Origin: Roseibacillus persicicus
Lineage (GTDB): Bacteria; Verrucomicrobiota; Verrucomicrobiia; Verrucomicrobiales; Akkermansiaceae
NCBI RefSeq assembly: GCF_014651675.1
Contig: NZ_BMXI01000004.1
Coordinates: 248,001 to 312,000 of the forward strand
Reading direction: 5' to 3'
Length of the DNA stretch: 64,000 nt
The translations under genes and the position numbers were made by a program. A model generated the notes under the pieces. It made no database searches. It had not been told where the DNA came from and saw only the letters and a list, made by a program, of their open reading frames with translations. Shown here in pieces: positions 1-31,841 of this stretch. The number at the start of each line of letters is the position of its first letter. The stretch's first letter is position 1.

Positions 1-2
1 AA

Positions 3-371
3 GAAAAAGTCATGGATGCCTTGGATGCCGGGGCTGCGGGCTACTTGCTCAAGTCGGCCACTCCGCGGGAAATCATTCGCGGATTAAAAGGCGCTTCCGA
101 AGGAGGAGTCCCACTGAGTCCGGCCATCGCGAAAACAGTGCTGGAGGAAATGAACTCTTCCCCCTCGCCTGAAGACTTCGACCTTTCGGAAAGAGAATTG
201 GAAGTGCTGCAATTGTTGGCCGAAGGATTGGCGAATAAACAGATTGCGGAGAGGCTGAATATTAGTCCCTTCACGGTGAATTTTCACTTCCGGAATCTCT
301 ACAAGAAACTGCAGGTTCAGTCTCAACCAGCGGCAGTTGCAAAGGCGTTTCGGGCCGGCTTGCTGAGTTAA
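3..371 (+). CDS. LuxR/NarL-family response regulator, C-terminal part (5' end outside window)
   Basis: This is the tail of a two-component response regulator; its start lies before base 1, because the frame is open to the window edge and the visible protein begins inside the receiver domain. The end of the receiver is recognisable by the conserved GAAGYLLK segment, where the lysine is the invariant receiver Lys. A LuxR-type helix-turn-helix follows, from about LSERELEVLQLLAEG to the SPFTVNFHFRNLYKKL recognition helix. It is clearly paralogous to the regulator at 11158-11805. It probably binds DNA as a phosphorylation-controlled dimer. By analogy with that second copy, a cognate kinase may sit just upstream, outside the window (inference). 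The ATG at base 12 is an internal Met, not the start. Confidence 0.9.
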   Translation, partial: EKVMDALDAGAAGYLLKSATPREIIRGLKGASEGGVPLSPAIAKTVLEEMNSSPSPEDFDLSERELEVLQLLAEGLANKQIAERLNISPFTVNFHFRNLYKKLQVQSQPAAVAKAFRAGLLS

Positions 372-8590: not shown

Positions 8591-11161
8591 ATGCCGTTTT
8601 CGTTGTTTCTTCGCCTTGCCCTTTTTTCCGTCGCTCTCTGCGGACAACTTTTCGTGGCTGCTGCGGAAACTGCGATTGCTCCCTATCAAGCTGATCCGCA
8701 CACCCTCCACCTCTGGCATCTCGATGAGGCAAAAGCGCCCTTTCGCGACGAAGGACCAACCCAGACCGACATGCTGGGATTGTTCAACGGGGCCAGGCCG
8801 TCCCAGAACTCCTACCCGGGCTTGGGCAAAGCCATATCCTTCAATCACAATGTGGGAGGAACGCCTGGGAATTCGGACTTGATGGGAGCGGTCCTCATCG
8901 CCAAGGAGGAACTCGCCGAGGGTGCGGCTGACCGCGTGGACTCCTCTTTTCAGTATTTTGGTGAGGATGGCGCTTTCACCTTTGAAGCAGTTGTCAAACT
9001 CGACCAGCACCCCTCCGAGGCCGAGGTGATCGCCCTTTCCATTCTTTCCATGGATGGGGAGGACAATGAACGCATCTTCAACTTCCGAATCGAGAGGCAG
9101 GGATTTCTCACCTTCAATCCTCTACCCGATAGCGGCAGCACCGGCGGAGCAATGGCCACGATTCCCACAGTCGGCCCCCATGCTCTCAATACCAAAGACT
9201 GGTTCCATGTCGCTGTCACCTACAACGGGCGCGAGGAAACCTCGGCCAACCTCCGCCTTTATTGGACGCGGCTAGACAGCGGAGCCACCGAGGCCAACCT
9301 CATCGGAGGTGGCACCCTTTCCAATGACCTCAACGGTAGGCTGGGTGACTTGGCCATTGGTAATGAGGCGCGCAATCACTTTAACGCGGAGGCGGAGCCC
9401 TTTTGCGGCAACATCGACGAGGTGCGAATTAGTTCCCTCGCTCGCCACGAGACCGACTATCTATTTGTCCCCGGAGAAATGCGCGTCCCTTCGGAAAAGT
9501 TCGATCCCTCCCCATCTAACAAAGCTCGCTCGGATGGAAAGATTCTTACCATTACCGAGATGCGGGTCGACGGAAAGCCAGTCGCTTTGCCAGACCGACC
9601 CGGTTCATCCCCCCTGACCTTACCCCCGGGCATTCACCGCATTGACTTCGACCTCCAATTCAACAGCCAACTCCAGTCCCTCAGCGGCTTGTCCGACATT
9701 CGCTGTCAGATGGAAGGCTTCGACGAAAGCTGGCGCAATGCCGATGCCGGGATGAGTCTGACCTTCCAAGTATTAGATGCTCAAGACCGTATCGTCTCGC
9801 AGAATCGCCATCTGGTAAACGGCAGCAGTGACGGCTGGAAGACCCCGATTTCCGAGTCCACCTTTGGCCCACGGGCCGAACCTTTGTTCATTCCTCTCAC
9901 TGGCAGGAAACTCAGAATCAGCCTCGACTCAGGGCCTCCCGATACCACTGGCAACTTTGCCATCAGCCAATTGAACCTTTCGCTGGCCAGTGATTCCGCG
10001 AACTCCTTTTGGCCCAACTCCAACTTGGCCGACGGAGAAAACCTCGACTCCCCTGCCGGAGTTCCCCGCGGTTGGACCCGAAGCGGCGGCGACCCGGCCA
10101 TCGCCCAAGTCGATCGTTCTTCGACGAGCCGGTTTCTCGTGTTAGTTGATGGAGAGCAAAGCAAGTCCGGCAGCTGGATCTCGGAGATCGACCTCGATCC
10201 CGAAATTCATCTTGGGAAAACCATCTCGTGCACTTGGAAGGAATCCTACAATGTCTTTGCCAAGGGAGTCCATCAATCCAGCTTTCTCAATGTCTCTAGC
10301 GGCGACTATGTCTTTCGGGCGGTGGGCCTCATCAATGGCGAGCTCATCGACGGTCCTGACCTCGTGCAGGCCTTTCGGGTTCGCCCTGCGCTGTCCGAAC
10401 GAGCTTGGTTCTGGCCCGCACTGACGTCGGCCACCGTCGCTCTTTTCGCCCTCGCACTGTTCCGGCACGCCCGTCGGCTCAACCGACGACGCCTCCGTCA
10501 GATGTGGTTTGAAAATGCCATCGAGCAAGACCGCATCCGCATCGCCCGCGACATGCATGACGACCTCGGCAACCGGATTTGCTTTCTCCGCATGACCGCC
10601 GCCCGTGCCAAAGAGGAGGCTGAACGCGACCCAGCCAAGTTGAAGCAACATCTCGGCAAGTTGGGTGCCTCCGCACGTGAACTGGTCAACGCCATGAACG
10701 AGCTGGTCTGGGCCGTGGACCCCAAATACGACACCTTGGATCACTTGGCCTCCCACCTGACGCGTGTCGCGGAAGACGTCTTTGGCGACAGCACCATCCT
10801 CTGCCGCTTTGACATCCCTTCCCGGGTTCCCGACTACGTGCTGGGGTCCGACTATCGCCATCACATCTCTCTCGCGGTGAAAGAGGCACTCTACAATGTG
10901 GTCAAACACGCCGGCCCGTGCGAAGTCCATCTCTCTCTCGATTGCAGTGACGACCAATTGAATATCGAGGTGCGAGACAACGGCTGCGGGTTCGATCCCA
11001 AACAGACAGATCCGATCTGCAACGGCTTGAAAAACCTCGTCGGACGAATGAAAGACTTGGGCGGCAGCTGTAAAATTATATCTTCTCTCGGGAAAGGAAC
11101 ACAGGTCTGCTTGAGCGCACCCCTTCCCACCCAGGATGAAAGTTCCTGCCCCATACTATGA
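8591..11161 (+). CDS. Sensor histidine kinase with extracytoplasmic LamG sensor domain
   Basis: An 856-residue membrane histidine kinase. Signal sequence about 1-25. A LamG/concanavalin-like domain spans about 35-300 with the block W204-FHVAVTY and then YWTRLDSG. A second extracytoplasmic region, about 315-600, resembles an interrupted Y_Y_Y domain (ends GDYVFRAVG). One transmembrane helix lies at about 606-627 (WFWPALTSATVALFALALF). The cytoplasmic part is a HisKA_3/HATPase module: phosphoacceptor H656 in RDMHDDLGNR, N-box EALYNVVKHAG, G1 box DNGCGFD and G2 box GLKNLVGRMKDLGG. Its stop codon overlaps the start of the response regulator (ATGA at 11158-11161), so the pair is translationally coupled. 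The LamG subtype matches that of the convergent rhamnosidase, which suggests a related glycan as signal (inference). Confidence 0.9.
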   Translation: MPFSLFLRLALFSVALCGQLFVAAAETAIAPYQADPHTLHLWHLDEAKAPFRDEGPTQTDMLGLFNGARPSQNSYPGLGKAISFNHNVGGTPGNSDLMGAVLIAKEELAEGAADRVDSSFQYFGEDGAFTFEAVVKLDQHPSEAEVIALSILSMDGEDNERIFNFRIERQGFLTFNPLPDSGSTGGAMATIPTVGPHALNTKDWFHVAVTYNGREETSANLRLYWTRLDSGATEANLIGGGTLSNDLNGRLGDLAIGNEARNHFNAEAEPFCGNIDEVRISSLARHETDYLFVPGEMRVPSEKFDPSPSNKARSDGKILTITEMRVDGKPVALPDRPGSSPLTLPPGIHRIDFDLQFNSQLQSLSGLSDIRCQMEGFDESWRNADAGMSLTFQVLDAQDRIVSQNRHLVNGSSDGWKTPISESTFGPRAEPLFIPLTGRKLRISLDSGPPDTTGNFAISQLNLSLASDSANSFWPNSNLADGENLDSPAGVPRGWTRSGGDPAIAQVDRSSTSRFLVLVDGEQSKSGSWISEIDLDPEIHLGKTISCTWKESYNVFAKGVHQSSFLNVSSGDYVFRAVGLINGELIDGPDLVQAFRVRPALSERAWFWPALTSATVALFALALFRHARRLNRRRLRQMWFENAIEQDRIRIARDMHDDLGNRICFLRMTAARAKEEAERDPAKLKQHLGKLGASARELVNAMNELVWAVDPKYDTLDHLASHLTRVAEDVFGDSTILCRFDIPSRVPDYVLGSDYRHHISLAVKEALYNVVKHAGPCEVHLSLDCSDDQLNIEVRDNGCGFDPKQTDPICNGLKNLVGRMKDLGGSCKIISSLGKGTQVCLSAPLPTQDESSCPIL

Positions 11162-11805
11162 AAAAGAACACCCTCGCTGTCGTCGAAGATGAAAGGCCCC
11201 TCCGGGAGCTCTTGGAAGAATTGATCGAATCATCCGAGGGGCTGGAACTTTGCGCTTCCTACTCGACTGCCGAGGACGCCATCAAAGGGATCCCGAAAAG
11301 CGGCGCGGAGATCGTCCTGATGGACATCCAGCTGCCGGGAATGTCCGGCATCGAATGTGTCGCCCAACTGAAAAGAATCTGCCCACAGATTCTGGTGCTG
11401 ATGGTCACCATCGACGATAAGAACGACCGCATCTTCGAAGCCTTGGCCGCGGGAGCATCGGGCTACTTGCTGAAGTGCGATGTTCCTAACAAACTCCTGG
11501 AGTCAATTCAGGATCTGATGTCGGGAGGCTCCCCTATGTCCAGCGCGATCGCGCGAAAGGTGGTGCAGCACTTCCAACACGATCCCCCTACTCCTGCGGA
11601 CGAGAACCTCAAGCTCACTCCCCGCGAAACTCAGATTCTCGATCTCTTGGCAAAGGGGCGCCTCTACAAAGAGATCGCAGCCGAACTCGGAATCGGCTTT
11701 GCCACCGTTCACACTCACCTCCAGAGAGTCTATGACAAGCTCCACGTCCGCACCCGCACCGAAGCCGTGATGAAATATATCGGCCACGGCGAGAACTCGC
11801 CCTAG
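11158..11805 (+). CDS. NarL/LuxR-family response regulator, partner of the LamG kinase
   Basis: A 215-residue two-domain regulator. The receiver has the acidic pair E10/D11, phospho-acceptor D56 (LMDIQLPGMSG), switch T84 and invariant K106 in GASGYLLK. The LuxR-type DNA-binding domain covers about 148-205 (LTPRETQILDLLAKG then ATVHTHLQRVYDKL). Translation starts within the kinase stop codon, so the two proteins are made together and should act as one phosphorelay. Targets cannot be read from sequence; the secreted sulfatase, rhamnosidase and repeat proteins around it are natural candidates (inference). It is a paralogue of the truncated regulator at the left edge. Confidence 0.93.
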   Translation: MKKNTLAVVEDERPLRELLEELIESSEGLELCASYSTAEDAIKGIPKSGAEIVLMDIQLPGMSGIECVAQLKRICPQILVLMVTIDDKNDRIFEALAAGASGYLLKCDVPNKLLESIQDLMSGGSPMSSAIARKVVQHFQHDPPTPADENLKLTPRETQILDLLAKGRLYKEIAAELGIGFATVHTHLQRVYDKLHVRTRTEAVMKYIGHGENSP

Positions 11806-11838
11806 GAGCCGACTTCCATCAGCCTCGCCGGACCGAAT

Positions 11839-11857
11839 CCTTTTCCAAGGAAAAAGG
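11839..11857. terminator. Possible short hairpin between convergent genes
   Basis: CCTTTTCC and GGAAAAAGG pair with one bulge in the 54-base gap between the response regulator and the convergent rhamnosidase. The A-run and T-run lie inside the stem, so this is a weak terminator candidate that could serve either strand. Confidence 0.3.
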
Positions 11858-11859
11858 GC

Positions 11860-14800
11860 TCACGGGAGATTCACTCGCGCGCGATAGAATGCCCGGGGCG
11901 AATCAGGCAACGTGTCGTCAATGAGGGTCACTTCCTCATCTTCGAGCAGAACTGAAGTGGTATCTACGGTCTCCCACTGGAGCGGCTCTAACAGGGTCGA
12001 ACGTTCGAGAAGGTAGAATCGACCTCTCTTTCCAGGGACGGAGAGTTGAAAGAATTCCACATCCAGATCGACCTCCATCTCTTGGACCTCGAAGTTCTCA
12101 CCTGCATCGAGAGGATCCGTGTTGGCAAGGAACTCTTCCAATGTGGTCTTCCCGTCTCCATCGAGATCAAGGGAGTCACCTGAGACAACCGGATTGGAAG
12201 CCTCGCTCCCGAACATAAACGCTTTCCAGTTCTCCTTCAGAACCTCGACGTCTGGAGTAGCAGAATCACTGAGCCAGATCACGTGTTCACCCGACGGCAC
12301 GTTCTCGATTACCAAATAACCATTCTCCTCTACCGCAGGAACCACCACACCGTCACAAATCACGGAGGCCTCGGCGAGCCCTTTGGAAGGAACGAGAATT
12401 CGGGCGGACATGTTGCCAGGAATCTCGACCCGAAGCCTGAAGGTCGACGGCGAATTCTCATCCACTGCCACCATCACTGGACCACGAATAGTAGGGATCT
12501 TTCCCGATGCCGAGGTGAGCCCGTTGACTCCGTCGCCAGTTCCCATCTGCGGCTTGATTTCGACTTCCCCATAGCCCGCAGTCAACGGCTTGAGACCGAG
12601 AACATAGCGCGGGATGATGTTCCCCGGCACAGCGCCCCAAGCGTGATTCCAATCCTGATTGGGCTTAAACTCTTGCCCCCAGGCTTCCATACTGATGGTC
12701 GCCCCCTCTTCAATCATGTTCCACCAATGACGTTTGTATTGCGGGTCGGTGTCCGTCATCAGACCAATGGCATAGTCTTCCTCACCGCCTTCAAAGAGCG
12801 CCTCCATGAGGTATTGGGCGCCGTAGACGCTACACGCCATATGTTTGGTCTTGAGAAAATCCATCACCGCAGTCACCCGGTCCTCCGGAACCAAGCCATG
12901 GGCCATGGCAAAGAAGTTGGCGTGGGCCGAGACATGAGAACGCGACGCCCCATCCTGATAGAGACTCCCGTTCCAGAAGCTCGTATTGAAGGCGGACTCT
13001 AACAGGTCAGCTCGGGCGGTGAAGTCTGCCGCATCGCTTCCGTTATCCAGCTCGGTGGCAATGAGGGCCATCAGGCGCAGCGCTTTGTAGTGGAAAGCGT
13101 TCACCACTGTGTTCAAGTTGCTGAAGCTATAGTTATCCCGCTCCCCCGCCGGCCAATCCACAATGTCACGCGGAACCCCGCTGGTCTGACTTTGCAGCAA
13201 ACCATCCGAGCGGCTCCAGTCGAGCAGCAGCTGAGTCTTCAAGGAATCATAGTTGGCAGCCAAGGCCTCCTTGTTCCCGGTCTGCATATAATCGGCCCAA
13301 GCCATGAGGTGAAAGTGCAGTCGCCACTCAGTCGGCCAGGTCGGGTTATCGAGCAAGTGCTCGTAGCTCTGGCGCGCAATGGTGAATTCCCTTTCGACCC
13401 CATAGTGGCTCAGCTGATTGATGTAGGCATCCGCCTCATAGGGCAATCTCTCCCGATCGCCATCGACATAGACCCCGGCAAAGGAAGTGGCTTTCATGGA
13501 GTATTGGCAAAGGTCCCACACCGCGTTCAAGGTGCTATCCGAGGAAACAAAGGAAGCAGCGTCTTCATCAAACGGAGTGTGAAGCACCACCTGCCGCACA
13601 TTCCCCAAGGTGATGGGCTCGGGTGAACCCAGGATTTCCACATAGCGAAAGGGCATCACCCCACCGGTCCAGGAAAGGTCGATCCCAACCGAAGTGGTCG
13701 AATAATGAACATCATAGCTTTGCGCCCCATTGCGCAGAGATACCGAAGTCGATCCCGAGCGAATCGTGCCACCGGGACTCATATTCACTGACGTGCCAAA
13801 GGCCTTTTCCCCCATTCTAACTTCCAATGATTGACCGGTATAGTTTCCGTCCAAGTGAAGAGTTAAATACCCAAAGGCGTCGCGACCGAAATCAATGTAG
13901 TAATTTCCACTCCCCTTGTCCACAACGGTAACGGGGGCAACCTGAGTGTCGAAGTCGGGTTGGTAACGACCCGACCATCGGTTCTCGGAGGAATTGCTCA
14001 CACTCCGTCCACCGTTCGGGGTAGAAGTCGCCTCCGTTTTGAACAACTGAATCTTGGACCACCCTGACGGTTCTTCACCTTCGCCCCAAGTTCTCACCCG
14101 CCAGAAGTAGGTCCGCCCACGAGCCAAATCGGTGGTGAAGGGGGCGACATTGACCGAGGCATTCGAGAGAACTTTGCCGGTGGCGAGAACATCACCCGTG
14201 CCAGCGCCAACCAAACCGGCGGTGGATGAGACAATGATTTCGTAGGCACTCTGGACCTCACCGCGTTTGCCGGGATGAAAAATCCACGCGAACTCTGGCT
14301 GAGTATCAGGAATGGTGGTGAGATGAGGATAAGCCAAAAGATCCACCATCAACCCGCTTGGCCTGGTCGAGTCTACCGCAGCGCCTGGAAAGTCAGCTGG
14401 GTCGTTGGGATCGGTATTTGCCGCCTGCTCGGCCGAATTCGAGAAGCTATCTCCATCAGGGTCACCGCTCCCCGTCTCGTTCAGCCCACCAAACGACTGC
14501 TCTTCCCAATCATCCGAAAGGCCATCAGAATCCCCGTCTCCGGGAACCGAACTTGCAGCCGCAGGGTCTGAAAGCGCGATAAACTCAGCGCTGTTGGAAA
14601 ACCCATCCCCATCGAAATCATCCTGAGGAAAGACATCGATGATGGAATTCAACCCGTCGCCCGTAGTTGCATCCACAATCGATTGCTCCCAGGAGTCCAG
14701 CAGGCCGTCCCCATCCAGGTCATTGGGATCATCGAACACAGTTGGGTTCGTCGCATTGTTTTCCTCCTCTTCATTGGAATAAATATCTCCATCCGGATTG

Positions 14801-16686
14801 TCGGTTCCATTATAGGCGAAAATATCGGGAAAATAAGCCAACTCCCAATTGTCGAGCAAGCCGTCCTCATCGAGATCATCAGGATCATTCGCGACCACCG
14901 GATTGGTCCCAATCGTGAACTCCTGCTCATTGGTGAGATCATCCGAGTCGAAATCATCACTCGCGATCACATCCTCAATGCTGACGACGGCATCCCCTTC
15001 GTCAGCCGCTACAATCTGGAGCTCCCAGGAATCAGGGAGCCCGTCACCATCCACGTCATTGGAAAGGCCAAAGAGAAACTCATTGGCACTCTTGTCTCCT
15101 TCCCAGATGGCCACCTCATCGATGCATCCTTGCAGACTTTCACTCGATGCATCACGGAATTCATTGCCAATCCCGAAGTCGCCATTTCCGTCAGAGACGT
15201 CAGCAGTCATATCGAAGCTGCCAATCGGATTGGCTGCCACCACGCCGCTATCGACCCTCGTCCAATAGAAAGTGAGGTTATCTGATTCGGCCTCATCCCC
15301 GGTGTAAGTCACCGCGACATGAAACCACTCATCAGCGACAAAGGCATGGGGGCCGCTGGTCGGAATCTCCGCGTCGAACGGGTTGCCTATCAGCGCTGAT
15401 ATTGAGTGAAAGCGCAGGTCGGCACCATTATTGAAGAGAACGAACTGGAAGGGACGATCCCCGTCGGAATTCTCATCATCCATACTGATAATTTCCCGTG
15501 GCGAGCCCGCGACAGAATCGAACTTCACCAAAGCCTCTATCGTCCACCCCACCAAAGTGTGGTTGGCACCCAAAACTTGCGAGACATTCACGTCACTCCC
15601 CCCGAGCAACCCGTCATCGCTGTCACTCAGTTCGACCGCGTCCCCGAAGTTGAAGACCCCGGTGACTCCAGCACCGGGATTGCCGACCGAACTCAAGGCA
15701 AGAGAATTTCCGTTTCCCGTATCCGCAAACGGAGCTGCGGACTCGTTCAAATGCCAAAGGTGAAGAGGAGTTCCATCGGAGTAAGGAACGGGTAGACTCT
15801 CTGAGAAGATAAATTCATCAACGGCCCGCGCCACCGTGCTTACCCGTCCTTCGTCCAACTGTCCCTGCACCCCTTCATCCAACCCCAGGTTCCCACTGCC
15901 CCGTCCCTCGTTGCCGAAGACCAAGGGAGAGTCGATGGTCCCATCGAAAGAAACGGCCCCCTCCGCACTGACGAAGACTTCGTTGGCTATCGGCGCGCCG
16001 CTATCGAGCCTCGTCCAGTAGAACCGGACCACCTCGCTTCCGGCCGATCCACTGCCGTCATAGGTCACCGCGACATGGAACCACTCGTCAGCAACGAAGG
16101 CATGATCGCCGGTGATAGACGTAAGATCGAAAGTCACCGCGCTCCCCCCGGGAACCGGATCGAAATTGAGCACTCCTCCGTTGTTGATTCGAAATTGAAA
16201 CGCTCGCGTCAACTGGCCGTCCCCACCCCAGATGTGCATGTGATTGGCTTGAGTGAGGGAGGGTAGCTTCACCAAGGCCTCCAGCGTAAACTCGTCTCCC
16301 AGCAAGGACATGTCGAACCGGTCCGCGGGTTCCACACTTTCAAAATTCCAAGAACCACTCTCATCGACGTCCACCCCGACGCCCTCGTTCACCCCCACAT
16401 TCAGCGCATTTCCAAAACCTGAAAAGCCGGAGGTCGAAGAAATCGCCTGGGCACTCGCAGGCACACTGCTGCCCGCTGAAAACACCCCATCATAGATTCC
16501 TGGTGAAGCCGCATTCACGAGAGCGCTCCCGCTTCCTTCATCCAAATGATAAAGAATCAAGGTGTCGCTATCGGTCTGCTGATAAGGCGCAACCCCTTGC
16601 GCCGTCGCAGGCGAGGCACTAAAAATAAAAATGAGAGAAAGCCCCAGAGTGAGCGGGGATTCAGGGCGAGAGTTTGAAAAAGACAT
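11860..16686 (-). CDS. Secreted GH78-type alpha-L-rhamnosidase with two LamG domains and TSP3-like repeats
   Basis: A 1608-residue secreted protein. Signal peptide about 1-29 (ends ATAQG). LamG1 about 30-300 (W202-FHVAVTY), LamG2 about 305-545 (W454-FHVAVTY). Four acidic repeats of the DLDGDGLLDSWE type form a probable calcium-binding stalk at about 550-790. A fibronectin-like region with FAWIFHPGKRGEVQSAYEI and GRTYFWRVRTWG leads into the six-hairpin catalytic domain. The segment YVDGDRERLPYEADAYINQ corresponds to the GH78 active-site loop, with E1079 as the likely general acid; downstream is GAVPGNIIPRYVLGLKPL. Near the C terminus are an EF-hand/dockerin-like DLDGDGKTTLEEFL and a final domain ending RAFYRARVNLP. 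Expected to remove terminal alpha-L-rhamnose from a polysaccharide; substrate specificity is unproven. It faces the LamG kinase and regulator. Confidence 0.85.
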   Translation of the reverse strand: MSFSNSRPESPLTLGLSLIFIFSASPATAQGVAPYQQTDSDTLILYHLDEGSGSALVNAASPGIYDGVFSAGSSVPASAQAISSTSGFSGFGNALNVGVNEGVGVDVDESGSWNFESVEPADRFDMSLLGDEFTLEALVKLPSLTQANHMHIWGGDGQLTRAFQFRINNGGVLNFDPVPGGSAVTFDLTSITGDHAFVADEWFHVAVTYDGSGSAGSEVVRFYWTRLDSGAPIANEVFVSAEGAVSFDGTIDSPLVFGNEGRGSGNLGLDEGVQGQLDEGRVSTVARAVDEFIFSESLPVPYSDGTPLHLWHLNESAAPFADTGNGNSLALSSVGNPGAGVTGVFNFGDAVELSDSDDGLLGGSDVNVSQVLGANHTLVGWTIEALVKFDSVAGSPREIISMDDENSDGDRPFQFVLFNNGADLRFHSISALIGNPFDAEIPTSGPHAFVADEWFHVAVTYTGDEAESDNLTFYWTRVDSGVVAANPIGSFDMTADVSDGNGDFGIGNEFRDASSESLQGCIDEVAIWEGDKSANEFLFGLSNDVDGDGLPDSWELQIVAADEGDAVVSIEDVIASDDFDSDDLTNEQEFTIGTNPVVANDPDDLDEDGLLDNWELAYFPDIFAYNGTDNPDGDIYSNEEEENNATNPTVFDDPNDLDGDGLLDSWEQSIVDATTGDGLNSIIDVFPQDDFDGDGFSNSAEFIALSDPAAASSVPGDGDSDGLSDDWEEQSFGGLNETGSGDPDGDSFSNSAEQAANTDPNDPADFPGAAVDSTRPSGLMVDLLAYPHLTTIPDTQPEFAWIFHPGKRGEVQSAYEIIVSSTAGLVGAGTGDVLATGKVLSNASVNVAPFTTDLARGRTYFWRVRTWGEGEEPSGWSKIQLFKTEATSTPNGGRSVSNSSENRWSGRYQPDFDTQVAPVTVVDKGSGNYYIDFGRDAFGYLTLHLDGNYTGQSLEVRMGEKAFGTSVNMSPGGTIRSGSTSVSLRNGAQSYDVHYSTTSVGIDLSWTGGVMPFRYVEILGSPEPITLGNVRQVVLHTPFDEDAASFVSSDSTLNAVWDLCQYSMKATSFAGVYVDGDRERLPYEADAYINQLSHYGVEREFTIARQSYEHLLDNPTWPTEWRLHFHLMAWADYMQTGNKEALAANYDSLKTQLLLDWSRSDGLLQSQTSGVPRDIVDWPAGERDNYSFSNLNTVVNAFHYKALRLMALIATELDNGSDAADFTARADLLESAFNTSFWNGSLYQDGASRSHVSAHANFFAMAHGLVPEDRVTAVMDFLKTKHMACSVYGAQYLMEALFEGGEEDYAIGLMTDTDPQYKRHWWNMIEEGATISMEAWGQEFKPNQDWNHAWGAVPGNIIPRYVLGLKPLTAGYGEVEIKPQMGTGDGVNGLTSASGKIPTIRGPVMVAVDENSPSTFRLRVEIPGNMSARILVPSKGLAEASVICDGVVVPAVEENGYLVIENVPSGEHVIWLSDSATPDVEVLKENWKAFMFGSEASNPVVSGDSLDLDGDGKTTLEEFLANTDPLDAGENFEVQEMEVDLDVEFFQLSVPGKRGRFYLLERSTLLEPLQWETVDTTSVLLEDEEVTLIDDTLPDSPRAFYRARVNLP

Positions 16687-16839
16687 AAATAAAAAAAGGA
16701 AATGGGGGATGCGGCAATGAACGTTCGACTAGAGAGCCAGCCCGTGATTGAGATTTTTTAATCTCCAAACTGTCCTCTTTCGGAGAGGGCTTCTGCCAGC
16801 TACTGGACTCGAATGCCCAAGGCAAAAACCACCCTACAA

Positions 16840-16871
16840 CCTCTTGGTCGACTCGTAAGTTGACCAAGAGG
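16840..16871 (-). terminator. Strong hairpin, probable terminator of the 16906-19197 gene
   Basis: A 14-bp stem (16840-16853 with 16858-16871, one G-U pair) closes the tetraloop CGTA, 34 bases past the stop of the gene on the minus strand. No uninterrupted T-run follows immediately on either strand; on the minus strand the nearest run is TTTTT about 11 bases on. It could also be a structured leader element of the rhamnosidase transcript. The remainder of the 219-base gap holds no gene. Confidence 0.55.
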
Positions 16872-16905
16872 CCGGCAAAAGTAGGGATAGGTTTGTTAGA
16901 GTTAT

Positions 16906-20286: not shown

Positions 20287-21306
20287 CTAGCCGTGCACTT
20301 GATTGATATCGATCATCACGGCCAAAATATCATTCCAAGTTTGCTGCTGTTCCAAAGTGCTGTTGGGGAACATGCAGCCATCCCAACAGATGTGCTGAAT
20401 CTCCGGTCGCTGATTCCCCTTCTCATCGAGAAGCCAAGACTTGGCACACTTCACAATATCCAACTTCCCGTTTGGATCCTTGGCAGGACAGTGACGTCCA
20501 GTCTTGTCGTGTGCTCCGGTCCCGTGGACCGTCCCGTCATTCTGGGCTACGTGGAAATCGTAAGTCCAGGGAGCAAGCTTGGAAGTCATCTCCGCATAAG
20601 CGGACTCGAATTCTTCCTCACTGTGTCCCTCAGAGAGCAAGCGGTGTTCCTCCGCGTTATACCCTAGCAAAAAGAGATAAGTGTGGGCGAGGTCAGCTTG
20701 GAAGCCCAAGCGCCCGGGGAGGCCGACAGCCTCCAGCAGGTCGAGCATGTCTTTCCAAGAGTGCATCCCGCCCCAACAAATCTCCCCTTCCGCTACTAGT
20801 ACCTCGTCGAACTCCTCCGCGACTTTTGCTGCTTCGGTGAAGGTTTGCGCGATGAGTTTCGTGTTGGCTACAGGATCTTTGGCCCAGTCCTCGACCCCGC
20901 AAGCAGAGTCGATGCGGATCGAGCCATACTCGCGAACACCATGTTCGCGCAGGACCTTGGCGTATTGGCAACCTTTACGCACGGCATTCACGAACGCGGT
21001 GCGTTCATCGGCCGACCCCATGGCGCTGCCTCCCTCGGTGTCGGGCCAGATTGGCGCCACCACCGAGCCGACTTTCAAGCCCGCGTTTGCGATCTTGTCA
21101 GCCAGTTTTCGAATCTCGGCATCACTCGCATCAATATCGAGATGCGGTTGATAGAGAAAGAGGTCCACTCCATCAAAGGTCTTTCCCTCCACTTCACTCC
21201 GAGTCGTGAGTTCCAGCATCCGGTCGAGACTGATGGGCGGCTCCGCAGAGCCCTCCTCTTTCCCGACCAGACCGGGCCACATTGCATTGTGTAATTTCCA
21301 AGCCAT
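20287..21306 (-). CDS. Sugar phosphate isomerase/epimerase (xylose isomerase-like TIM barrel)
   Basis: A 339-residue protein of the AP endonuclease 2 / xylose isomerase-like TIM-barrel family. Characteristic strand and metal-site segments are visible: FDGVDLFLY near the N terminus, [24 protein letters not shown] (metal-ligand Glu), [14 protein letters not shown] (Asp and His ligands) and [10 protein letters not shown] near the C terminus. No signal peptide, so cytoplasmic. Family members isomerise or epimerise sugars or inositol derivatives; substrate cannot be named here. It lies 11 bases downstream of the giant heme-binding fusion protein on the same strand, so it is probably co-transcribed with it, a pairing that suggests one carbohydrate-oxidation route (inference). 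Confidence 0.85.
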
Positions 21307-21317
21307 TCGTTAGTAGT

Positions 21318-24300
21318 CTATTTTTTGAGAAGCTCCTCCGGTGAATAGAAGCCCACTTTGTCTTTAGTCTTCTCGCGAACTTCTTTCACTTCCGCAGGAG
21401 TAACAGGTTCGGACTTGTTGCCGAACGAGTTCCGCACATAGGTCAAGACCGCTGCCACTTCCTCGTCCTTCAGCATGCCACCGAAGGGAGTCATGGGAAC
21501 TTGGCCGGGATACTTCACACCCTTCACCTCGATTGGTCCCATAAGACCATTGAGGGTCAGCTTGATCAAAGCCTCCTTATCGTCGTTCACCCACTTGGTG
21601 CCTGCCAATGGCGGGAATCCAGCGGAGGGAAGTCCGTTGCCGTCCTCCTGGTGACAAGTGATGCAGAAACCTTCACGATGATAAATCTCGTGACCGGTCC
21701 GGTAAGCGTTGCGGAATTTCTTCGCGAGGTGCTTGGGAATGACAGCCTTTGCTTCCTCGTCGCCGCCATGCTCGATTCCTTTCAAGCGGTCGAGTGAAGT
21801 TTCAATCGGCTTCTCATTCCACATGTCCTTGGCTCCTTCTGCCGCTGCAGTCGCAATTTCAAGACCTGCAGCATTATCCATCCATGAAGCAGTGACAGCA
21901 GCTTCCATCCGAACCCGTCCATGAGAATCGGAGGCGGCGGTGAGAAGCAAGTCTTCGGAACCAGACACGAACTCGTAGTTGTAGCGCAGGACCCTAACGG
22001 CAGCGGCACGGACGCGATGGTCTTCAGACTGAAGCAAAGACTTCAGCAAGTCCTCGTCCAAACGTCCGATACCCCAACCCACCCAGAGTGCTTCCAAACG
22101 AGCATGCTCGTCAGTCTGCTTGGCAACCCAAGCCTTGGTCGCTGCAGCGACTTCGTCCGCATCGTGGCCGCGCAGTTCGCGACGGGTGCGGTAGCGAGCG
22201 CGATACTCGGGCTCCTTAAGGTTTTCCAACAACTGGGATACCGAAGCTCCCGCAACCGGGGCGGACTTGACCAAAGGACGGTCCTTGGCGGTGATGCGAT
22301 AGATCCGACCATGCGCATGGTCACGATAGGGGTCGCGAGCGTTGTGCTGCATGTGCCCAATCAGGACGTTGTGCCAGTCGACCAGATAGAGGGAGCCATC
22401 AGGGGCGAACTCGAGGTCAACGGGGCGGAAGTTGCCATCTTTGGAAACGACCAGGTCCTGGCGGTGCTCCAACTTATAGCCGGTGCCGTCTTCTTTGACG
22501 CTGTGCTGCTTGATTCCAAGGAAACCAATGTTGTTACAGAGCAGCATGTCGCCATGCATCTCCTCTGGGAAATGACGGGACGAAACAAACTCCAATCCAG
22601 AAGTCGGGCGCACGCGATGACTCTCTGGAATGAGGTCGTGGGTACCGGGGTTTTTCACTCCATAAGGGGTTTTCATGGAAACTGGCAACATCCAGTTCAC
22701 CTTCGTTCCTGAAGTGTGCAGGAAGAAGTCCTGACCCCACTCGTCGAATGCAACTCCCCAAGGATTGGGAATCGAAACCTGAACCGTGCGCTCAAGACGC
22801 TTGAGTCGTGGAGAGTAGCGATAGAAGCCACCATCAACCCCGCGAACCGCACCGCGCATGGTCTCGGTGTTGGAGTGAAGGAAGACCCCTTCGGAAAGCA
22901 TGAAAGCTCCGGAAGGATCCGCGCAGAAGGCACTCACCGCGTGGTGGGTATCGTGATGGTCGAAACCAGTCATTACGATCTCCTGGGTGTCGCACTTGTC
23001 ATCGCCATCGGTGTCGCGCATCAGCACGAGGTGAGGCGCTTGGGAAACAAAGACGCCATACTCGGAGAGTTCGAAGCCCATGGGGAGGCTGATTTTGTCG
23101 ACAAAGACAGTCTCCTTGTCAGCTTTGCCGTCGCCGTCGGTGTCTTCGTAAATCAGAATTTTGTCGTCGGGATAGGCATCGCCGGGACGGTAATGCGGGT
23201 AACTCGGCATTGTGGCAACCCAGAGGCGGCCCTTATTGTCGAAGGCCATTTGCACGGGATTGGCCAAGTTGTCGAACTCACGCTCGGAGGCGAAGAGCTC
23301 AATCTGAAAACCATCGGCAACCTCGAGGCTATCGATAGCATCCTGACCATACTTATACTCAGTGCTGCCGTTTTTCACACTCGGCTTGTAGTTGGTGTCC
23401 ACCGGCTTCAGTTCGGTAGTCTTGGCATCGGCCGCAGCGAGGTCGAAGGCCCTTCCTTCGGCAGCGGCCCAGATCGCTTGGTCGCGGTTTTCAGTCATCT
23501 CGCGATTCTTCTTAATCTCGTCGGGATAGTTGTCGGGGCCAAACGGCTTGTATCGACGACCGTAGACGTGAACGCCGTTGGGCATGCGGTAATCATTCAT
23601 CCAGTGCCAGTTCTTGGCCTCAACCGCTGCGTAAACCTTCTCCAACTGAGGAGCCTCAAAGCCCTTGGCGTTGAAGAGAGCCTTTACCAGCTCACGACCC
23701 AACCAGCGATAACCCTCGTCACCGGGGACGACCCCGTAGGGAGTCTTCACAGTAGAGCCACCCAGTTCGGCGCTCTGTTGAGTCATTTCGAACAAGTTGA
23801 CGAAGCCAACTTTTTTCTCCGCCGCGACCTGAGCCATGACAGCCACGTAGTCCGTCAAATCGGCGACACGGGTCTCGTAGTCTTCCACCCAAGTCTCGGG
23901 CGCGATTGGAGAGATCAGCACCAACTTGGGTGCGGCCTGACCGTTGTATTTTTGCGAGCGGGAATGGTCGATCCAAGCATTCAGTTCAGCCTGAAACGCA
24001 TCGAGACCACTCTTACCATCGAAGGATTCACTCCATCCGAAGAAGCCCAGGACGGTGTCGGCTTTCAGCGTGGTCAACCACTCATCTTCAGTGGGATAAT
24101 GGCCAGTGCCCTTGTGGATGCTGAACTCGGGTCGAATCTTGTCCGCACCGGGGAATGCCCACTGGGATTTGCGGGAAGGATGGGGACGGAAGCCTGCCGT
24201 AAAACCAGGGTGGCAAAGGTTGCGCACTACCAGCTTTTTGCCAGGAAAGGCAGTCTGCAAGTAAGCCTCAAAGTGAGGGTGGCGCTGCATGCCATCACCC

Positions 24301-25424
24301 AAACCGCCACCGACAAAGACCAAACGCTCACCGTCTTTCACCTCTCCGAAAGGCAAAGTAGTTTCCTGAGCGGAAGCCTGCTCATCTCCCTTCGACACGG
24401 TCCAACCAGCGGGAATCATTCCGTCGGGGAGACCCGTGGAAGCCGAAGAGCCGAGCTTGAAGTCGTCCACTTGAAGATTGCGCTTAGCAAAGAAGCCCTT
24501 CTGCTTGATGAAGCCATAGAAGGTTGGATTGAAGGCATCGACAGGGGTCACATCAGCTTCAGCGGGAACTTTCTCGTCAGTCAGAAAGAGGGCCGCATTC
24601 ACCATCAAACGGCGAAGGTCTTCGCTTAAGAAGTCAACGGATGCTCCCATTGTGGTCGCAAATGTCAGCCCCTTCGTCGAGCCATTGGGTGCGGTGTATT
24701 CACGCAACCAAGCGAGTGGCTGCATGGGCTTGTTCTTCTCTCCTTCCACCGCTTTGGAATCGGGAGTCAGTCCATCAGTCACCTCTCCTCGTAGAAGAAT
24801 GGTCGAGTTGTCGGGCTTCACGGCCCTGATTCCGTAAACATCAGAGGGTCCGAAGACATCGGATACCCCGTTCAGGATCGCGTGGCCTTCGTTCGCCTTC
24901 TCAATCACTCCGCGGGCTCCTTCGACCTTGTGCTTACCATGGTGGCTCACCCATCCATCTCCGATAATCCGGGGACCAAAGGTCTTCCACTTGAAGCCCT
25001 CAGTCTCCCCGTCGCCCGTAAAGGCATGGGTTGAGGTGCGGAATCCGATCACCGGTTTCCCCTCATTCAAATAATCAGCCAGAATCTGATAAGAACCATC
25101 GTCCAGACGTCGAAAACGAGTGCCAATGATCATCAGGTCGGCATCCTTCAGCTCCTCAATCCCCGGCATGCTGCGCTGATTGTTGGGGTCGATATACTTG
25201 CCCTCACTGTCCATGGAGAACAAAACGGTGCAGTCATAACCAAAGCGCTGACTGAGAATCTTGGCGAACATGGGTCCGCTTTCTTCTCCTCGATATTCTT
25301 CGTCTCCGGTTAAGAAGACGATCTTCTTCCCTTTGCCGACACCCTCTTTTCCTTCGAAATGAAGCTGTCCCTCTGCCGTGGACCAAAGTCCGGTAGCGAC
25401 TACCGCTAAAATCAATTTTCTCAT
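21318..25424 (-). CDS. ThuA / SGNH hydrolase / PVC-type membrane-bound dehydrogenase with HEAT and cytochrome c domains
   Basis: A 1368-residue exported fusion. I set the start at 25424 (MRKLILAVVATGLWSTAEG signal peptide) instead of the upstream GTG or ATG. Order: ThuA-like domain about 30-285 (KIVFLTGDEEYRGEES); GDSL/SGNH-like region about 360-600 (RLVFVGGGLGDGMQ); a long link; a beta-propeller of the PVC membrane-bound dehydrogenase type about 715-1060 (FDNKGRLWVATMPSYPHY, DTDGDDKCDTQEI); HEAT-like helices about 1085-1230; and a C-terminal cytochrome c domain with C1254-I-T-C1257-H1258 and a downstream MTPFGGML that can supply the distal Met. It probably oxidises a sugar or related substrate in the periplasm with electron transfer through its own heme. 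The substrate is unknown. It has an operon-like relationship with the isomerase gene. Confidence 0.87.
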   Translation of the reverse strand: MRKLILAVVATGLWSTAEGQLHFEGKEGVGKGKKIVFLTGDEEYRGEESGPMFAKILSQRFGYDCTVLFSMDSEGKYIDPNNQRSMPGIEELKDADLMIIGTRFRRLDDGSYQILADYLNEGKPVIGFRTSTHAFTGDGETEGFKWKTFGPRIIGDGWVSHHGKHKVEGARGVIEKANEGHAILNGVSDVFGPSDVYGIRAVKPDNSTILLRGEVTDGLTPDSKAVEGEKNKPMQPLAWLREYTAPNGSTKGLTFATTMGASVDFLSEDLRRLMVNAALFLTDEKVPAEADVTPVDAFNPTFYGFIKQKGFFAKRNLQVDDFKLGSSASTGLPDGMIPAGWTVSKGDEQASAQETTLPFGEVKDGERLVFVGGGLGDGMQRHPHFEAYLQTAFPGKKLVVRNLCHPGFTAGFRPHPSRKSQWAFPGADKIRPEFSIHKGTGHYPTEDEWLTTLKADTVLGFFGWSESFDGKSGLDAFQAELNAWIDHSRSQKYNGQAAPKLVLISPIAPETWVEDYETRVADLTDYVAVMAQVAAEKKVGFVNLFEMTQQSAELGGSTVKTPYGVVPGDEGYRWLGRELVKALFNAKGFEAPQLEKVYAAVEAKNWHWMNDYRMPNGVHVYGRRYKPFGPDNYPDEIKKNREMTENRDQAIWAAAEGRAFDLAAADAKTTELKPVDTNYKPSVKNGSTEYKYGQDAIDSLEVADGFQIELFASEREFDNLANPVQMAFDNKGRLWVATMPSYPHYRPGDAYPDDKILIYEDTDGDGKADKETVFVDKISLPMGFELSEYGVFVSQAPHLVLMRDTDGDDKCDTQEIVMTGFDHHDTHHAVSAFCADPSGAFMLSEGVFLHSNTETMRGAVRGVDGGFYRYSPRLKRLERTVQVSIPNPWGVAFDEWGQDFFLHTSGTKVNWMLPVSMKTPYGVKNPGTHDLIPESHRVRPTSGLEFVSSRHFPEEMHGDMLLCNNIGFLGIKQHSVKEDGTGYKLEHRQDLVVSKDGNFRPVDLEFAPDGSLYLVDWHNVLIGHMQHNARDPYRDHAHGRIYRITAKDRPLVKSAPVAGASVSQLLENLKEPEYRARYRTRRELRGHDADEVAAATKAWVAKQTDEHARLEALWVGWGIGRLDEDLLKSLLQSEDHRVRAAAVRVLRYNYEFVSGSEDLLLTAASDSHGRVRMEAAVTASWMDNAAGLEIATAAAEGAKDMWNEKPIETSLDRLKGIEHGGDEEAKAVIPKHLAKKFRNAYRTGHEIYHREGFCITCHQEDGNGLPSAGFPPLAGTKWVNDDKEALIKLTLNGLMGPIEVKGVKYPGQVPMTPFGGMLKDEEVAAVLTYVRNSFGNKSEPVTPAEVKEVREKTKDKVGFYSPEELLKK

Positions 25425-25609
25425 CGTCTGTTTAGTTACTGCCCCGAAGCACGGGTGATTGCACATTTTTTTTGCCGAATCTGAGCCATCATCCCAAGCC
25501 TGTGATGATTTCCGCCAAACTTATGGTTTATTCTCTTTCAAGAAACGTTCCATAAACTCTATTGGAGGAAATCTGAGGACATCAGACCCGTCCACTCTCC
25601 AGCTTTGTC

Positions 25610-26082: not shown

Positions 26083-27207
26083 TCAGCCCCCGACGGTCAT
26101 CAGGCCGAGATACCACTCCCAGATTTTCCATCCTCCAAAAGCCCAGGTCACCCCCGCCAAGGCCAAAAATGGGCCGAATGGCAAGGGTTTGCCCAAGCCA
26201 ACCCGCAACAGCAGGGCACCCAACAGAGCATAGAGAGACGAGCCAAAAAGCGTGAAAATCACCGCAGGCCAGCCCAGAAAGGCCCCGATCATGGCCAACA
26301 AGGGAGGGTCGCCTCCACCCATCGCCTCGCGGGGGCGAACCACTTCTGTTGCCTTCCCAGAAAGCGAACTGATTTCTTCAATCTTGAAAATTTGTTCCCC
26401 GATGGCGACCTGCTCCCCTCTCATCACGAGACTCTCGCCTGCCACTTTCTTGCCATCCACAAGGAAGTCGCAACCATCCATCATAAGCTTGTCGGTGGGC
26501 CGATAGAACATATCACCCCATTCGAAGGCTTCCCCGTCGAGCACGAGGCAGAGCTGACCCATCGGATCGTCCTCCTCCGGCTCGCGCAGTTCCCAATCAA
26601 CCGGCTTTTCAAAAGAAAACTTCTGCTTTCCGAACGCCAGCTTCCCCCCCCAGACCACGAGCTGCAAAACCGCGTAACCCGCTGCAAACCCAACGAGAGC
26701 CTCCCGCCAGCCCGGCCAGCCCAGGTCCGACTTTACCAAAGTCACGAGCTCGGGAAAAAAATAAGCGCCCACAATCGCAAATGCGGCCCCCCACCAAGTC
26801 ATCTTGACCGGAATAATGTAGTGCTCGGCATCAATGAAGGAAATGCTGACCAACAAGGTTAGGAGCACCATCAGGAGAAAGGCCTCGCCCGGCTGCCCGT
26901 TCATCCCAAAGAAATACCAAGCCGCGCCCCACAGAATCATAGTCAAGGCTTCCACCAATACGTAGCGCACCGGAATCTTCATCTTGCATTCGGCGCACTT
27001 GCCCCGCTGCCAGACCCAGGTGAAAATTGGGATATTCCGATACCACGGAATGTCTTTCCGGCAGCCGGGGCAAAACGAACGCTTGGGCTCATTGACCGAC
27101 ATATTGAGCGGCACCCGATAGATCACCACGTTGAGGAACGACCCCACGCAGGCGCCCACGAATAAGACAACAAACCACCAAAACGGACTGCTCCAAGCTA
27201 CGATCAC
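26083..27207 (-). CDS. Prepilin peptidase (A24 family) with inserted cytoplasmic domain
   Basis: A 374-residue polytopic membrane protein that would cleave prepilin or pseudopilin leaders and methylate the new N terminus. The N-terminal DiS_P_DiS region contains VGSFLNVVIYR and two zinc-binding pairs, C-P-G-C and C-A-E-C. The first catalytic Asp lies in FIDAEHYIIP and the second in the GxGD-type motif MGGGDPPLL. Between them is a soluble insertion of about 100 residues (from FGKQKFSFEKP to KATEVVRPRE) that ordinary PilD lacks. No other pilus or secretion gene is nearby. Translation begins at GTG (27205-27207). Confidence 0.88.
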   Translation of the reverse strand: MIVAWSSPFWWFVVLFVGACVGSFLNVVIYRVPLNMSVNEPKRSFCPGCRKDIPWYRNIPIFTWVWQRGKCAECKMKIPVRYVLVEALTMILWGAAWYFFGMNGQPGEAFLLMVLLTLLVSISFIDAEHYIIPVKMTWWGAAFAIVGAYFFPELVTLVKSDLGWPGWREALVGFAAGYAVLQLVVWGGKLAFGKQKFSFEKPVDWELREPEEDDPMGQLCLVLDGEAFEWGDMFYRPTDKLMMDGCDFLVDGKKVAGESLVMRGEQVAIGEQIFKIEEISSLSGKATEVVRPREAMGGGDPPLLAMIGAFLGWPAVIFTLFGSSLYALLGALLLRVGLGKPLPFGPFLALAGVTWAFGGWKIWEWYLGLMTVGG

Positions 27208-27331
27208 GGCGGAAACCTAGCAGCCCACCCCACAACCCCGAACTGAAAAGTTTGGCAGAACGAAATACTTCATCATCCTTCCAGACGCAGGTGCCCCGAG
27301 GGGCTGCCATGCCGATGTAGAACCCTCTTCC

Positions 27332-27358
27332 GATTCAGAAAATAGGCTTTCCTGAATC
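27332..27358. repeat. 7-bp inverted repeat upstream of a small acidic gene
   Basis: GATTCAG and CTGAATC flank 13 bases, and two more A-T pairs can extend the stem after one mismatch. It ends 28 bases before the ATG at 27387. It could be an operator or a leader hairpin; the 179-base gap otherwise shows nothing recognisable. Confidence 0.3.
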
Positions 27359-27386
27359 CTTCCCGCTATTAATAAAAGGCCACCAC

Positions 27387-27635
27387 ATGGACGATCCCGA
27401 AATTCTCGCTCTGCTGCCTGCTATCGAAGAACAACTGACCTCATCGGAAACCCCTTTCGTCGCCAGCACCCTGACGGGTCTGTCGGCTGAAGACGACATC
27501 GAGGAAGAGGAAGCCAAATACATGATCGCCTTTTGCCTCGCTGATGAAATTGAAAAGATGGACCGTGAGGAGCGTCCGTTCGATCTGGAGCGCTACAAGC
27601 TCCTTCTCACCCTTCTGCCTGCTCTGCCCCAATGA
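27387..27635 (+). CDS. Small acidic protein of unknown function
   Basis: An 82-residue, strongly acidic and leucine-rich protein with no signal peptide or membrane segment. Three helices are likely: residues about 4-18, 33-57 (EEEEAKYMIAFCLADEIEKM) and 66-80. The frame has the third-position GC preference of its neighbours and a clean ATG, which supports it as a real gene. I do not recognise the family. It converges with the PEP-CTERM gene at 27696-28346, 60 bases away. Confidence 0.6.
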   Translation: MDDPEILALLPAIEEQLTSSETPFVASTLTGLSAEDDIEEEEAKYMIAFCLADEIEKMDREERPFDLERYKLLLTLLPALPQ

Positions 27636-27695
27636 TTCAGGCCCGGCTCGAGGGTGATGCAGATTTCATCCGATAGAGAGGGAACGAAGCCACCT

Positions 27696-28346
27696 TTATA
27701 GCCTAGTCCACGTTCGGACCCTGGTGTTTATGATCACAAAGGACACCCCAATCGCGAAAAAGAGAGGAAGCTGCGGTTCTGGGATCGTAGCAATGGAAGC
27801 AAGTTCCAGACGCAAGTTCGGCTCAACCCGACTAGCCGAAAATACAATCTCCGCCGGGCTAAAAGTGGACTCACTCGTGAACGCTGAAAACGGGATCTCG
27901 ATTGTTCCAGGCCCCTCCAGAGCAAATAACTCACTTGAAATACTAGATTCCACCCCATCGACAGTGAGGTGATATGAACCTCGCCAAAAACCGGAATCCA
28001 CATAGGAAAAACTCAGTAGGAAAGCGGTGTCTCCACAAGCCAACAGGTCAATCTGGTCTTCAGGCTCGATAGAGTAGCTCAGGGACAAATACCCAAAGTC
28101 GCTGCTCAAGAAGGAAAATGCCGTTGCCTCGGTGTCAACTGTCAGGTTCAGAGGTGCAGACCTCAATGAACTAGCGCTAATCGATCGTCGTCCCCCGAAG
28201 ACCAAAGCAGGATCCAAGCCTTCCTGTGAAATTGAATCCGAGTGATTAAGAGCGAGCCCCCCCACGCTAAAGTCATCGACCGTGATAGCGCCGTTTGAAA
28301 ATCCTGCAGGAAAGAGCAAACCGCAAGCAAGCAAAAGCCTTTTCAT
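27696..28346 (-). CDS. PEP-CTERM-like secreted protein
   Basis: A 216-residue secreted protein. The signal peptide is about 1-19 (MKRLLLACGLLFPAGFSNG). The ectodomain is a predicted beta-sandwich starting ITVDDFS, the same opening as in two other secreted proteins here, and contains GYLSLSYSIEP and FWRGSYHLTVDG. The tail reads IPEPQ, a hydrophobic helix, then a basic stretch RVRTWTR, so it is a degenerate PEP-CTERM signal without the usual RRR cluster. Function is unknown. The gene has lower third-position GC than its neighbours by eye, which may indicate a younger or transferred gene. Confidence 0.75.
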   Translation of the reverse strand: MKRLLLACGLLFPAGFSNGAITVDDFSVGGLALNHSDSISQEGLDPALVFGGRRSISASSLRSAPLNLTVDTEATAFSFLSSDFGYLSLSYSIEPEDQIDLLACGDTAFLLSFSYVDSGFWRGSYHLTVDGVESSISSELFALEGPGTIEIPFSAFTSESTFSPAEIVFSASRVEPNLRLELASIATIPEPQLPLFFAIGVSFVIINTRVRTWTRL

Positions 28347-28503
28347 GAATCTACATTGTATTCACCGATGTGGGAGTGCAAGTTTAAATCTCTCGAGAGT
28401 TTCACGATGCCTCACTTCAGAGAAAAGCCGATTTTCTATCACGTTGGAGACAGCCATTCATTCTCAGTGGTGATGGAAGCTTCTCGGCCGACAAGTCAAT
28501 TGT

Positions 28504-28872: not shown

Positions 28873-28927
28873 CTCTCCCGTTAGGTTCTGGGCCCCTCCA
28901 AGAGGGCGGTTGAGGACAGCCTAAGTC

Positions 28928-29900: not shown

Positions 29901-29915
29901 ATAGCTTGCCCGCGC

Positions 29916-30545: not shown

Positions 30546-30581
30546 CCAAGGCAGACTCTCAATTCACCCGTTCAACACACC

Positions 30582-31829: not shown

Positions 31830-31841
31830 TTTTCCGTTTCC

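What the first reader, a model, noticed from the sequence alone, without database searches (positions are those of the whole stretch)
8591..16686. Sensor kinase and a convergent GH78 rhamnosidase carry the same LamG subtype, suggesting direct sensing of the enzyme's own glycan
Seen: the kinase sensor (residues about 35-300) and both LamG domains of the rhamnosidase share W-FHVAVTY (W204 in the kinase, W202 and W454 in the enzyme), then YWTR[LV]DSG, and a common opening of the type L-W-H-L-[DN]-E. Kinase and response regulator are translationally coupled. Known: HisKA_3 kinases with extracytoplasmic sensors control sugar-degradation loci. Inference: the pair detects the rhamnose-containing polysaccharide that the enzyme binds, and controls this locus, including the sulfatase and surface proteins. 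I am not aware of a described system with this sensor architecture.
Basis: partly seen in the sequence, partly recalled or inferred. Interest (0 to 1): 0.75.

Follow-up and report, generated by a model that had tools for sequence, protein, structure and literature searches.

The report
Sugar-lectin kinase beside rhamnosidase gene
A bacterial sensor protein carries the same unusual sugar-binding-type domain as the rhamnose-cutting enzyme encoded next to it, and a good part of its relatives in other Verrucomicrobiota sit beside such an enzyme too, so it probably tells the cell when that enzyme's sugars are present.

Summary
The kinase LamG aligns with both GH78 LamGs (35-36%; E 4e-31, 1e-37). 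Among 56 Laminin_G_3 matches in this genome it retrieves only those two strongly. In 13 kinase-bearing genomes, 12 of 22 non-kinase domains of this subtype, in 6 of 13 loci, lie within 15 kb of a LamG kinase (0.11 loci expected). Ten of 22 LamG kinases have a GH78 within 10 kb (0.41 expected). Nine of these ten GH78s fall in one subclade that splits as the kinases do.

The interpretation needs correcting. All 22 kinase LamGs form one clade (100/99): the sensor domain has one origin and was not copied from this enzyme. Seven of ten partner GH78s lack LamG; 12 of 22 kinases have no GH78 nearby. Another two-component pair sits just upstream of the surface-protein and sulfatase genes, so control of those is unproven. 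Ligand and regulation are untested. Best reading: a two-component regulator of a GH78 locus with an enzyme-type lectin domain as sensor.

The parts
8591..11161 (+). LamG sensor histidine kinase, 856 aa: N-terminal signal/TM (by eye), LamG (about 26-300), all-beta region (301-604, no Pfam match), TM about 605-630 (by eye), HisKA_3, HATPase_c
8666..9484 (+). LamG sensor domain of the kinase
11158..11805 (+). NarL/LuxR-type response regulator (Response_reg + GerE), overlaps the kinase stop by ATGA
11860..16686 (-). GH78 alpha-L-rhamnosidase, 1608 aa: signal peptide (by eye), LamG1, LamG2, TSP3 repeats, Ig_Rha78A_N, 6-hairpin catalytic domain, C-terminal tail
15784..16602 (-). GH78 LamG1, in the enzyme clade of L067/L068/L035 proteins
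15037..15789 (-). GH78 LamG2, sister to the LamG of the L034 GH78 (L079, Luteolibacter pohnpeiensis); model pLDDT 84.9
16687..16905 (-). Intergenic stretch upstream of the GH78 gene; presumed place of its promoter (no motif demonstrated)
   Evidence: and gene layout

Best explanation
A two-component system that regulates a GH78 rhamnosidase locus and whose periplasmic sensor starts with a lectin-type LamG domain of a family otherwise found in secreted proteins, several of them glycan-active, of the same bacteria. Shown here by sequence: the domain match, one origin of the sensor LamG among the kinases found, recurrent linkage to GH78, mostly to one GH78 subclade, and matching splits of kinase paralogues and GH78 types. 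Inferred: a rhamnose-containing oligosaccharide released by or destined for the GH78 binds the LamG (perhaps with the following all-beta region), the signal crosses one TM helix to HisKA_3, and the LuxR-type regulator switches GH78 expression. The LamG was probably recruited once from secreted proteins onto a kinase family whose other members start at the all-beta region, and was then inherited with the kinase.
For: Domain match and genome-wide specificity. Kinase LamGs one clade, 22 of 22 and 30 of 30 with eight further kinases, joined with 10 enzyme domains (SH-aLRT 97) in the outgroup tree. Relatives without LamG: of 13 ORFs in loci L082-L149 that match the all-beta region none matched the LamG query; nine of them match both the all-beta region and the kinase core well and have only about 22-98 residues in front. 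GH78 within 10 kb of 10 of 22 LamG kinases against 0.41 expected; among eight further kinases two more (L075 8 bp behind the regulator gene, L080 about 7 kb away) have a clear GH78 of another type. GH78 is, with TSP3, the commonest Pfam family among 105 flanking proteins of 13 loci (9 proteins each). GH78, kinase and regulator co-directional in L034, L038, L039, L042, L044, L045 and L051; in L040 GH78 and the split kinase are. Nine of ten partner GH78s are in a starred set of ten rows and split as the kinases do. Fold: LamG2 model best matches AbnA domain 4 (Z 20.6, 195 aligned, rmsd 2.6), which PMC9110388 (passages) reports binding arabinopentaose.
Against: No ligand, expression or regulator-binding data. 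In this window the GH78 is convergent, not co-transcribed. Twelve of 22 LamG kinases have no GH78 within 10 kb, including all eight of one subclade. In 8 of the 21 genomes with a hit the subtype occurs without a LamG kinase found. Loci are related by descent, so the chance estimates overstate independence. The kinase-sensor model is modest (pLDDT 68.6; model residues 18-94 under 50). A shared fold does not show sugar binding.
Confidence: 0.6

Rival explanations
1. The LamG is mainly structural or binds the cell's own envelope/matrix glycan or protein; the pair senses envelope state, and its place beside GH78 reflects gene-cluster inheritance only.
For: The subtype also occurs in secreted proteins in which Pfam finds little but LamG and TSP3 (L034:1788, L035:13664, L041:6196 and L043:6272 proteins). 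PEP-CTERM proteins lie beside the kinase in L038 (over the cut-off) and L035 (just under), and one starts the window's gene row at 534. Twelve of 22 kinases have no GH78 within 10 kb.
Against: Two kinase paralogue clades track two GH78 types; recurrent GH78-kinase-regulator order; best fold match is an oligosaccharide-binding enzyme domain.
Confidence: 0.2
2. The sensor senses the very same polysaccharide through the same binding site as the enzyme's LamGs, controlling the whole locus including sulfatase and surface proteins.
For: 40 columns conserved in both kinase (at least 90%) and enzyme (at least 80%) LamGs; all five kinases of the window's subclade have LamG-bearing secreted proteins in their flanks against 1 of 17 others.
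Against: Seven of ten partner GH78s lack LamG; deep kinase/enzyme split; 23 kinase-only fixed positions; a second two-component pair upstream of the sulfatase genes.
Confidence: 0.15
3. The resemblance is a recent gene conversion or copy from the neighbouring enzyme without functional meaning.
For: Only that the three domains are adjacent and alike.
Against: The kinase LamG is closer to 21 other kinase LamGs (48-60%) than to its neighbours (32 and 38%).
Confidence: 0.02

Closest known systems
Bacteroidetes hybrid two-component systems (HTCS), PMC3243724 (passages read)
   Same: Periplasmic sensor linked to a polysaccharide locus; that paper reports four sensor domains that bind oligosaccharides of the target polysaccharide.
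   Different: Per that paper the usual sensor has Reg_prop propellers and a YYY domain in one polypeptide with an AraC-type output; here LamG in front, no Reg_prop or Y_Y_Y Pfam match, separate LuxR-type regulator.
Clostridium thermocellum SigI/RsgI biomass sensors, PMC4711584 (passages read)
   Same: Sensor module of the kind found in secreted enzymes: CBM3, PA14 or a GH10-like module; that paper gives the RsgI6 GH10 module as 57% identical to Xyn10D.
   Different: Anti-sigma factor with the module on the outer cell surface; here a histidine kinase with LamG in a Verrucomicrobiota bacterium.
AbnA domain 4, Geobacillus GH43 arabinanase, PMC9110388 (passages read)
   Same: Closest solved fold of the enzyme LamG2 model (Z 20.6) and in the top tied group for the kinase model (Z 13.1); ConA-like sugar-binding accessory domain.
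   Different: About 16% identity; arabinan; no signalling role described in the passages seen.
NarXL/UhpBA-type HisKA_3 kinase with LuxR-type regulator
   Same: Kinase core and regulator families.
   Different: NCBIfam matches of the kinase cover only its last third and score far below the curated cut-offs.

Membership tests
HisKA_3 / LuxR-type two-component system | HisKA_3 + HATPase_c kinase with adjacent receiver-HTH regulator | tested here: met
   All four families over the Pfam cut-off
Laminin_G_3 (PF13385) | Match over the curated cut-off in kinase and enzyme | tested here: met
   41.3 and 73.3 bits, cut-off 27.6
GH78 alpha-L-rhamnosidase | 6-hairpin catalytic and C-terminal domains | tested here: met
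   Bac_rhamnosid6H 149.9 bits, Bac_rhamnosid_C 37.9 bits; aligns with solved rhamnosidases 6i60, 3cih, 2okx
GH78 alpha-L-rhamnosidase | Hydrolysis of alpha-L-rhamnosides | not testable with these tools
   The presumed acid (E of DRERL) and base (E of SMEAW) align with E of DER and E of LWERW in 6i60; their catalytic roles are recalled, not from a call
Bacteroidetes HTCS | Reg_prop propellers, YYY domain, AraC output in one chain | tested here: not met
   None of these in the Pfam scan of kinase or regulator
Y_Y_Y domain (PF07495) | Match to the Pfam model | tested here: inconclusive
   No match up to E 0.05; region 301-604 is mostly beta strands in the model; likeness to such domains is recalled and by eye
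RsgI biomass sensor | Anti-sigma domain with cognate SigI | tested here: not met
   Histidine kinase and regulator instead
Glycan-binding module (CBM) | Demonstrated sugar binding | not testable with these tools
   Fold match only

The most novel reading that the evidence does not exclude
A family of Verrucomicrobiota sensor kinases acquired, once, a glycan-binding LamG from secreted glycan-active proteins and uses it as a periplasmic read-out of the neighbouring enzyme's sugar; kinase paralogues then specialised with their GH78 partners, so the sugar sensed can be predicted from the linked enzyme. This would be a two-component counterpart of the RsgI principle.
Probability: 0.4. Interest if true: 0.7.

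Novelty: new variant of a known kind. Interest (0 to 1): 0.52.

Why it matters
To my knowledge (recalled) sensors of Verrucomicrobiota polysaccharide loci are little studied. A sensor domain of the same narrow family as secreted proteins of its locus gives a concrete, testable rule for matching orphan kinases to glycans, and a single-origin domain gain with matching splits of sensor and enzyme is a clean case for studying how sugar specificity of signalling evolves. Print: paper searches were judged by their listings (titles, starts of abstracts); no listed paper appeared to describe a LamG-sensor histidine kinase. The two papers holding 'LamG' with 'histidine kinase' and 'polysaccharide' use the words for separate proteins in the passages seen. 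The library lacks most subscription journals.

Tried and rejected
Recent copying from the local enzyme: rejected, kinase LamGs form one clade. Shared regulator motif among eight upstream stretches of the window: pairs of 18-mers with at most 4 mismatches were 6, against 0 to 9 in ten shuffles; nothing found, and the test is crude. Rooting the LamG tree with five other LamGs of the genome: the outgroup did not hold together (two rows on the wrong side, long branches), so descent from enzyme LamGs is only suggested. Close-relative scan of genome contigs with the kinase alone found nothing; the alignment scan worked, and its table keeps the best 80 of 528. PDB sequence search with the LamG profile: two hits up to E 1, the better one over 17 positions only; with region 301-604: nothing meaningful. 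Foldseek with the whole kinase sensor gave mostly generic beta-sandwich hits. Many fold hits are lectin-like binding domains of clostridial neurotoxins; this is the common ConA-like fold and was not pursued. One search scored at most 8 candidates a genome, so counts were taken, where all candidates were scored; these two calls covered the 13 kinase-bearing genomes of the 21 with a hit.

Full report
What is there. The window (G000:C4:248001-312000) encodes an 856-aa kinase at 8591-11161(+), a LuxR-type regulator at 11158-11805(+) that overlaps it by ATGA, and a 1608-aa GH78 at 11860-16686(-), tail to tail. Kinase and enzyme LamGs align over most of their length at 35-36%.

Is it more than chance? 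Yes. The genome has 56 Laminin_G_3 matches. With the kinase LamG as query the only strong hits besides itself are the two domains of the neighbouring enzyme (2.7e-28, 6.1e-26; next 7.8e-5). I fetched the other 53 domains: four versions of the shared motifs each occur in 0 of 53, though a looser form of the first occurs in 20 of 56.

Other genomes. Of 288 genomes of the order, 21 held a match to the kinase LamG at E 1e-6; in 387 genomes of the phylum, 11 held a profile match at 1e-15, eight of them in the same family, with up to six candidates a genome scored. Twenty-two kinases with this LamG come from 13 of the 21 genomes, all of one family; in the other eight the subtype was found only in other proteins. 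A scan of titled genome records gave twelve LamG kinases (L070-L081) among the best 80 loci kept; four are on contigs of the same length and place as ours; records include Luteolibacter pohnpeiensis, L. marinus and Haloferula sp. BvORR071.

Linkage. In the 13 genomes the subtype profile finds 44 domains: 22 in kinases and 22 elsewhere; 12 of these 22, in 6 of 13 loci, lie within 15 kb of a LamG kinase, against 0.11 loci expected from random placement. Ten of 22 kinases have a GH78 within 10 kb, against 0.41 expected from 90 GH78 matches. The split is uneven: 0 of 8 in one subclade, 10 of 14 in the rest. The loci are homologous, so these figures show maintained linkage, not independent events. 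Of eight further kinases, five (L071, L072, L073, L075, L080) join that subclade of eight (13 rows, SH-aLRT 100). None of the eight further kinases has a subtype LamG protein in its flank, but two, L075 (8 bp behind the regulator, convergent as in the window) and L080 (about 7 kb away), have a full GH78 of another, higher-scoring type (406-407 bits). Several of these contigs are short. So GH78 neighbours are not confined to one kinase subclade.

Gene order. GH78 lies just upstream of, and in the same direction as, the kinase in L039, L042, L044 and L045 (gaps of about 60-135 bp), with one ORF of 264-290 aa between in L034, L038 and L040, and downstream of the regulator in L051. In L041 and L043 secreted proteins with two LamGs are divergent from the kinase across about 94 and 232 bp. 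In the window the GH78 is convergent, so co-transcription is not possible there.

Trees. All 22 kinase LamGs form one side of a branch (100/99), also with eight more kinases (30 of 30, SH-aLRT 99). The enzyme's LamG1 and LamG2 sit in separate enzyme clades; LamG2 is sister to the LamG of the L. pohnpeiensis GH78 (L034/L079). With a weak outgroup the kinase clade joins 10 enzyme domains (SH-aLRT 97), which suggests descent from secreted-protein LamGs. In loci L082-L149, 13 ORFs match the all-beta region and none of them matched the LamG query; nine are clear all-beta-plus-kinase proteins with about 22-98 residues in front, while L086 is cut by its contig end, L142 lacks the kinase match, and L102 and L106 match over about 80-120 residues only. 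So the LamG looks like an addition. In the GH78 tree (10 partners, 19 others chosen) nine of ten partner enzymes and one enzyme 49 kb from its genome's kinase form a starred set of ten; it splits into {window, L034, L043} (with LamG) and the short enzymes, as the kinases do. G157 and G143 each have kinases of both clades, so this is not only a species tree; inside the short group species history cannot be told apart from pairing.

Against the simple 'same glycan' model. Seven of ten partner GH78s (592-618 aa) have no LamG and no C-terminal F[FYW]R tail, which hints at a different compartment from the big enzymes (inferred). Forty columns are conserved in both kinase and enzyme LamGs, but 23 are fixed in kinases while no residue reaches half of the enzyme rows; at some of these the commonest enzyme residue is the same. 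A second kinase-regulator pair ends at window position 371, directly upstream of the PEP-CTERM, PATR and sulfatase genes.

Fold. The LamG2 model (pLDDT 84.9) matches AbnA domain 4 best (Z 20.6, next group 18.2), which binds arabinopentaose according to PMC9110388 (passages). The kinase sensor model is weaker (pLDDT 68.6); AbnA, tetanus-toxin-type and CBM40 lectin domains are tied at the top (Z 13.1-12.2). This says lectin-like; it does not name the sugar.

What the sugar may be. GH78, a sulfatase in this window and in L043, and BNR_4 proteins carrying the same LamG subtype (L038, L055) would fit a sulfated rhamnose-rich algal polysaccharide such as ulvan. That BNR_4 includes ulvan lyases is recalled, not from a call. 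This is a guess.

Compared with what is known: it works like an HTCS (oligosaccharide read-out of a polysaccharide locus) and, in using an enzyme-type module as sensor, like RsgI; it is a member of neither (membership table).

Noticed in passing
window 1-371; L223:13495-15726 and 15733-16371 (G000:C4): A second kinase (743 aa, kinase core match 3e-30, no LamG match) and LuxR-type regulator directly upstream of the PEP-CTERM, PATR and sulfatase genes of the window; a rival regulator for them.
   Followed up: partly
C-termini of LamG secreted proteins; window GH78 end at 11863: 18 of 24 non-kinase LamG-subtype proteins end in F[FYW]R plus 1-9 residues, against 8 of 398 other predicted ORFs of 180 aa or more and 0 of 7 short GH78s. 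May be a C-terminal sorting or secretion signal; the 24 are related proteins.
   Followed up: partly
L046, L048, L049, L050, L052, L053: The kinase subclade of eight has its own conserved neighbours: in six loci a protein of about 1155-1262 aa (three members scanned, no Pfam match), and five flanking proteins match 3keto-disac_hyd.
   Followed up: partly
L040:7589-8914 and 8842-10317: LamG kinase lies in two overlapping ORFs (frameshift or assembly error); left as is.
   Followed up: no
L038:4764-8918, L055:6310-9612: BNR_4 proteins with the same LamG subtype; possible polysaccharide lyases.
   Followed up: no
window 20287-25466: Sugar-isomerase-like TIM barrel gene and a 1382-aa PVC-type haem-binding CxxCH protein; its GDSL-lipase match is under the Pfam cut-off.
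   Followed up: no
window 26083-36611: Type IV prepilin peptidase and an RND efflux set (HlyD, AcrB, outer-membrane channel).
   Followed up: no
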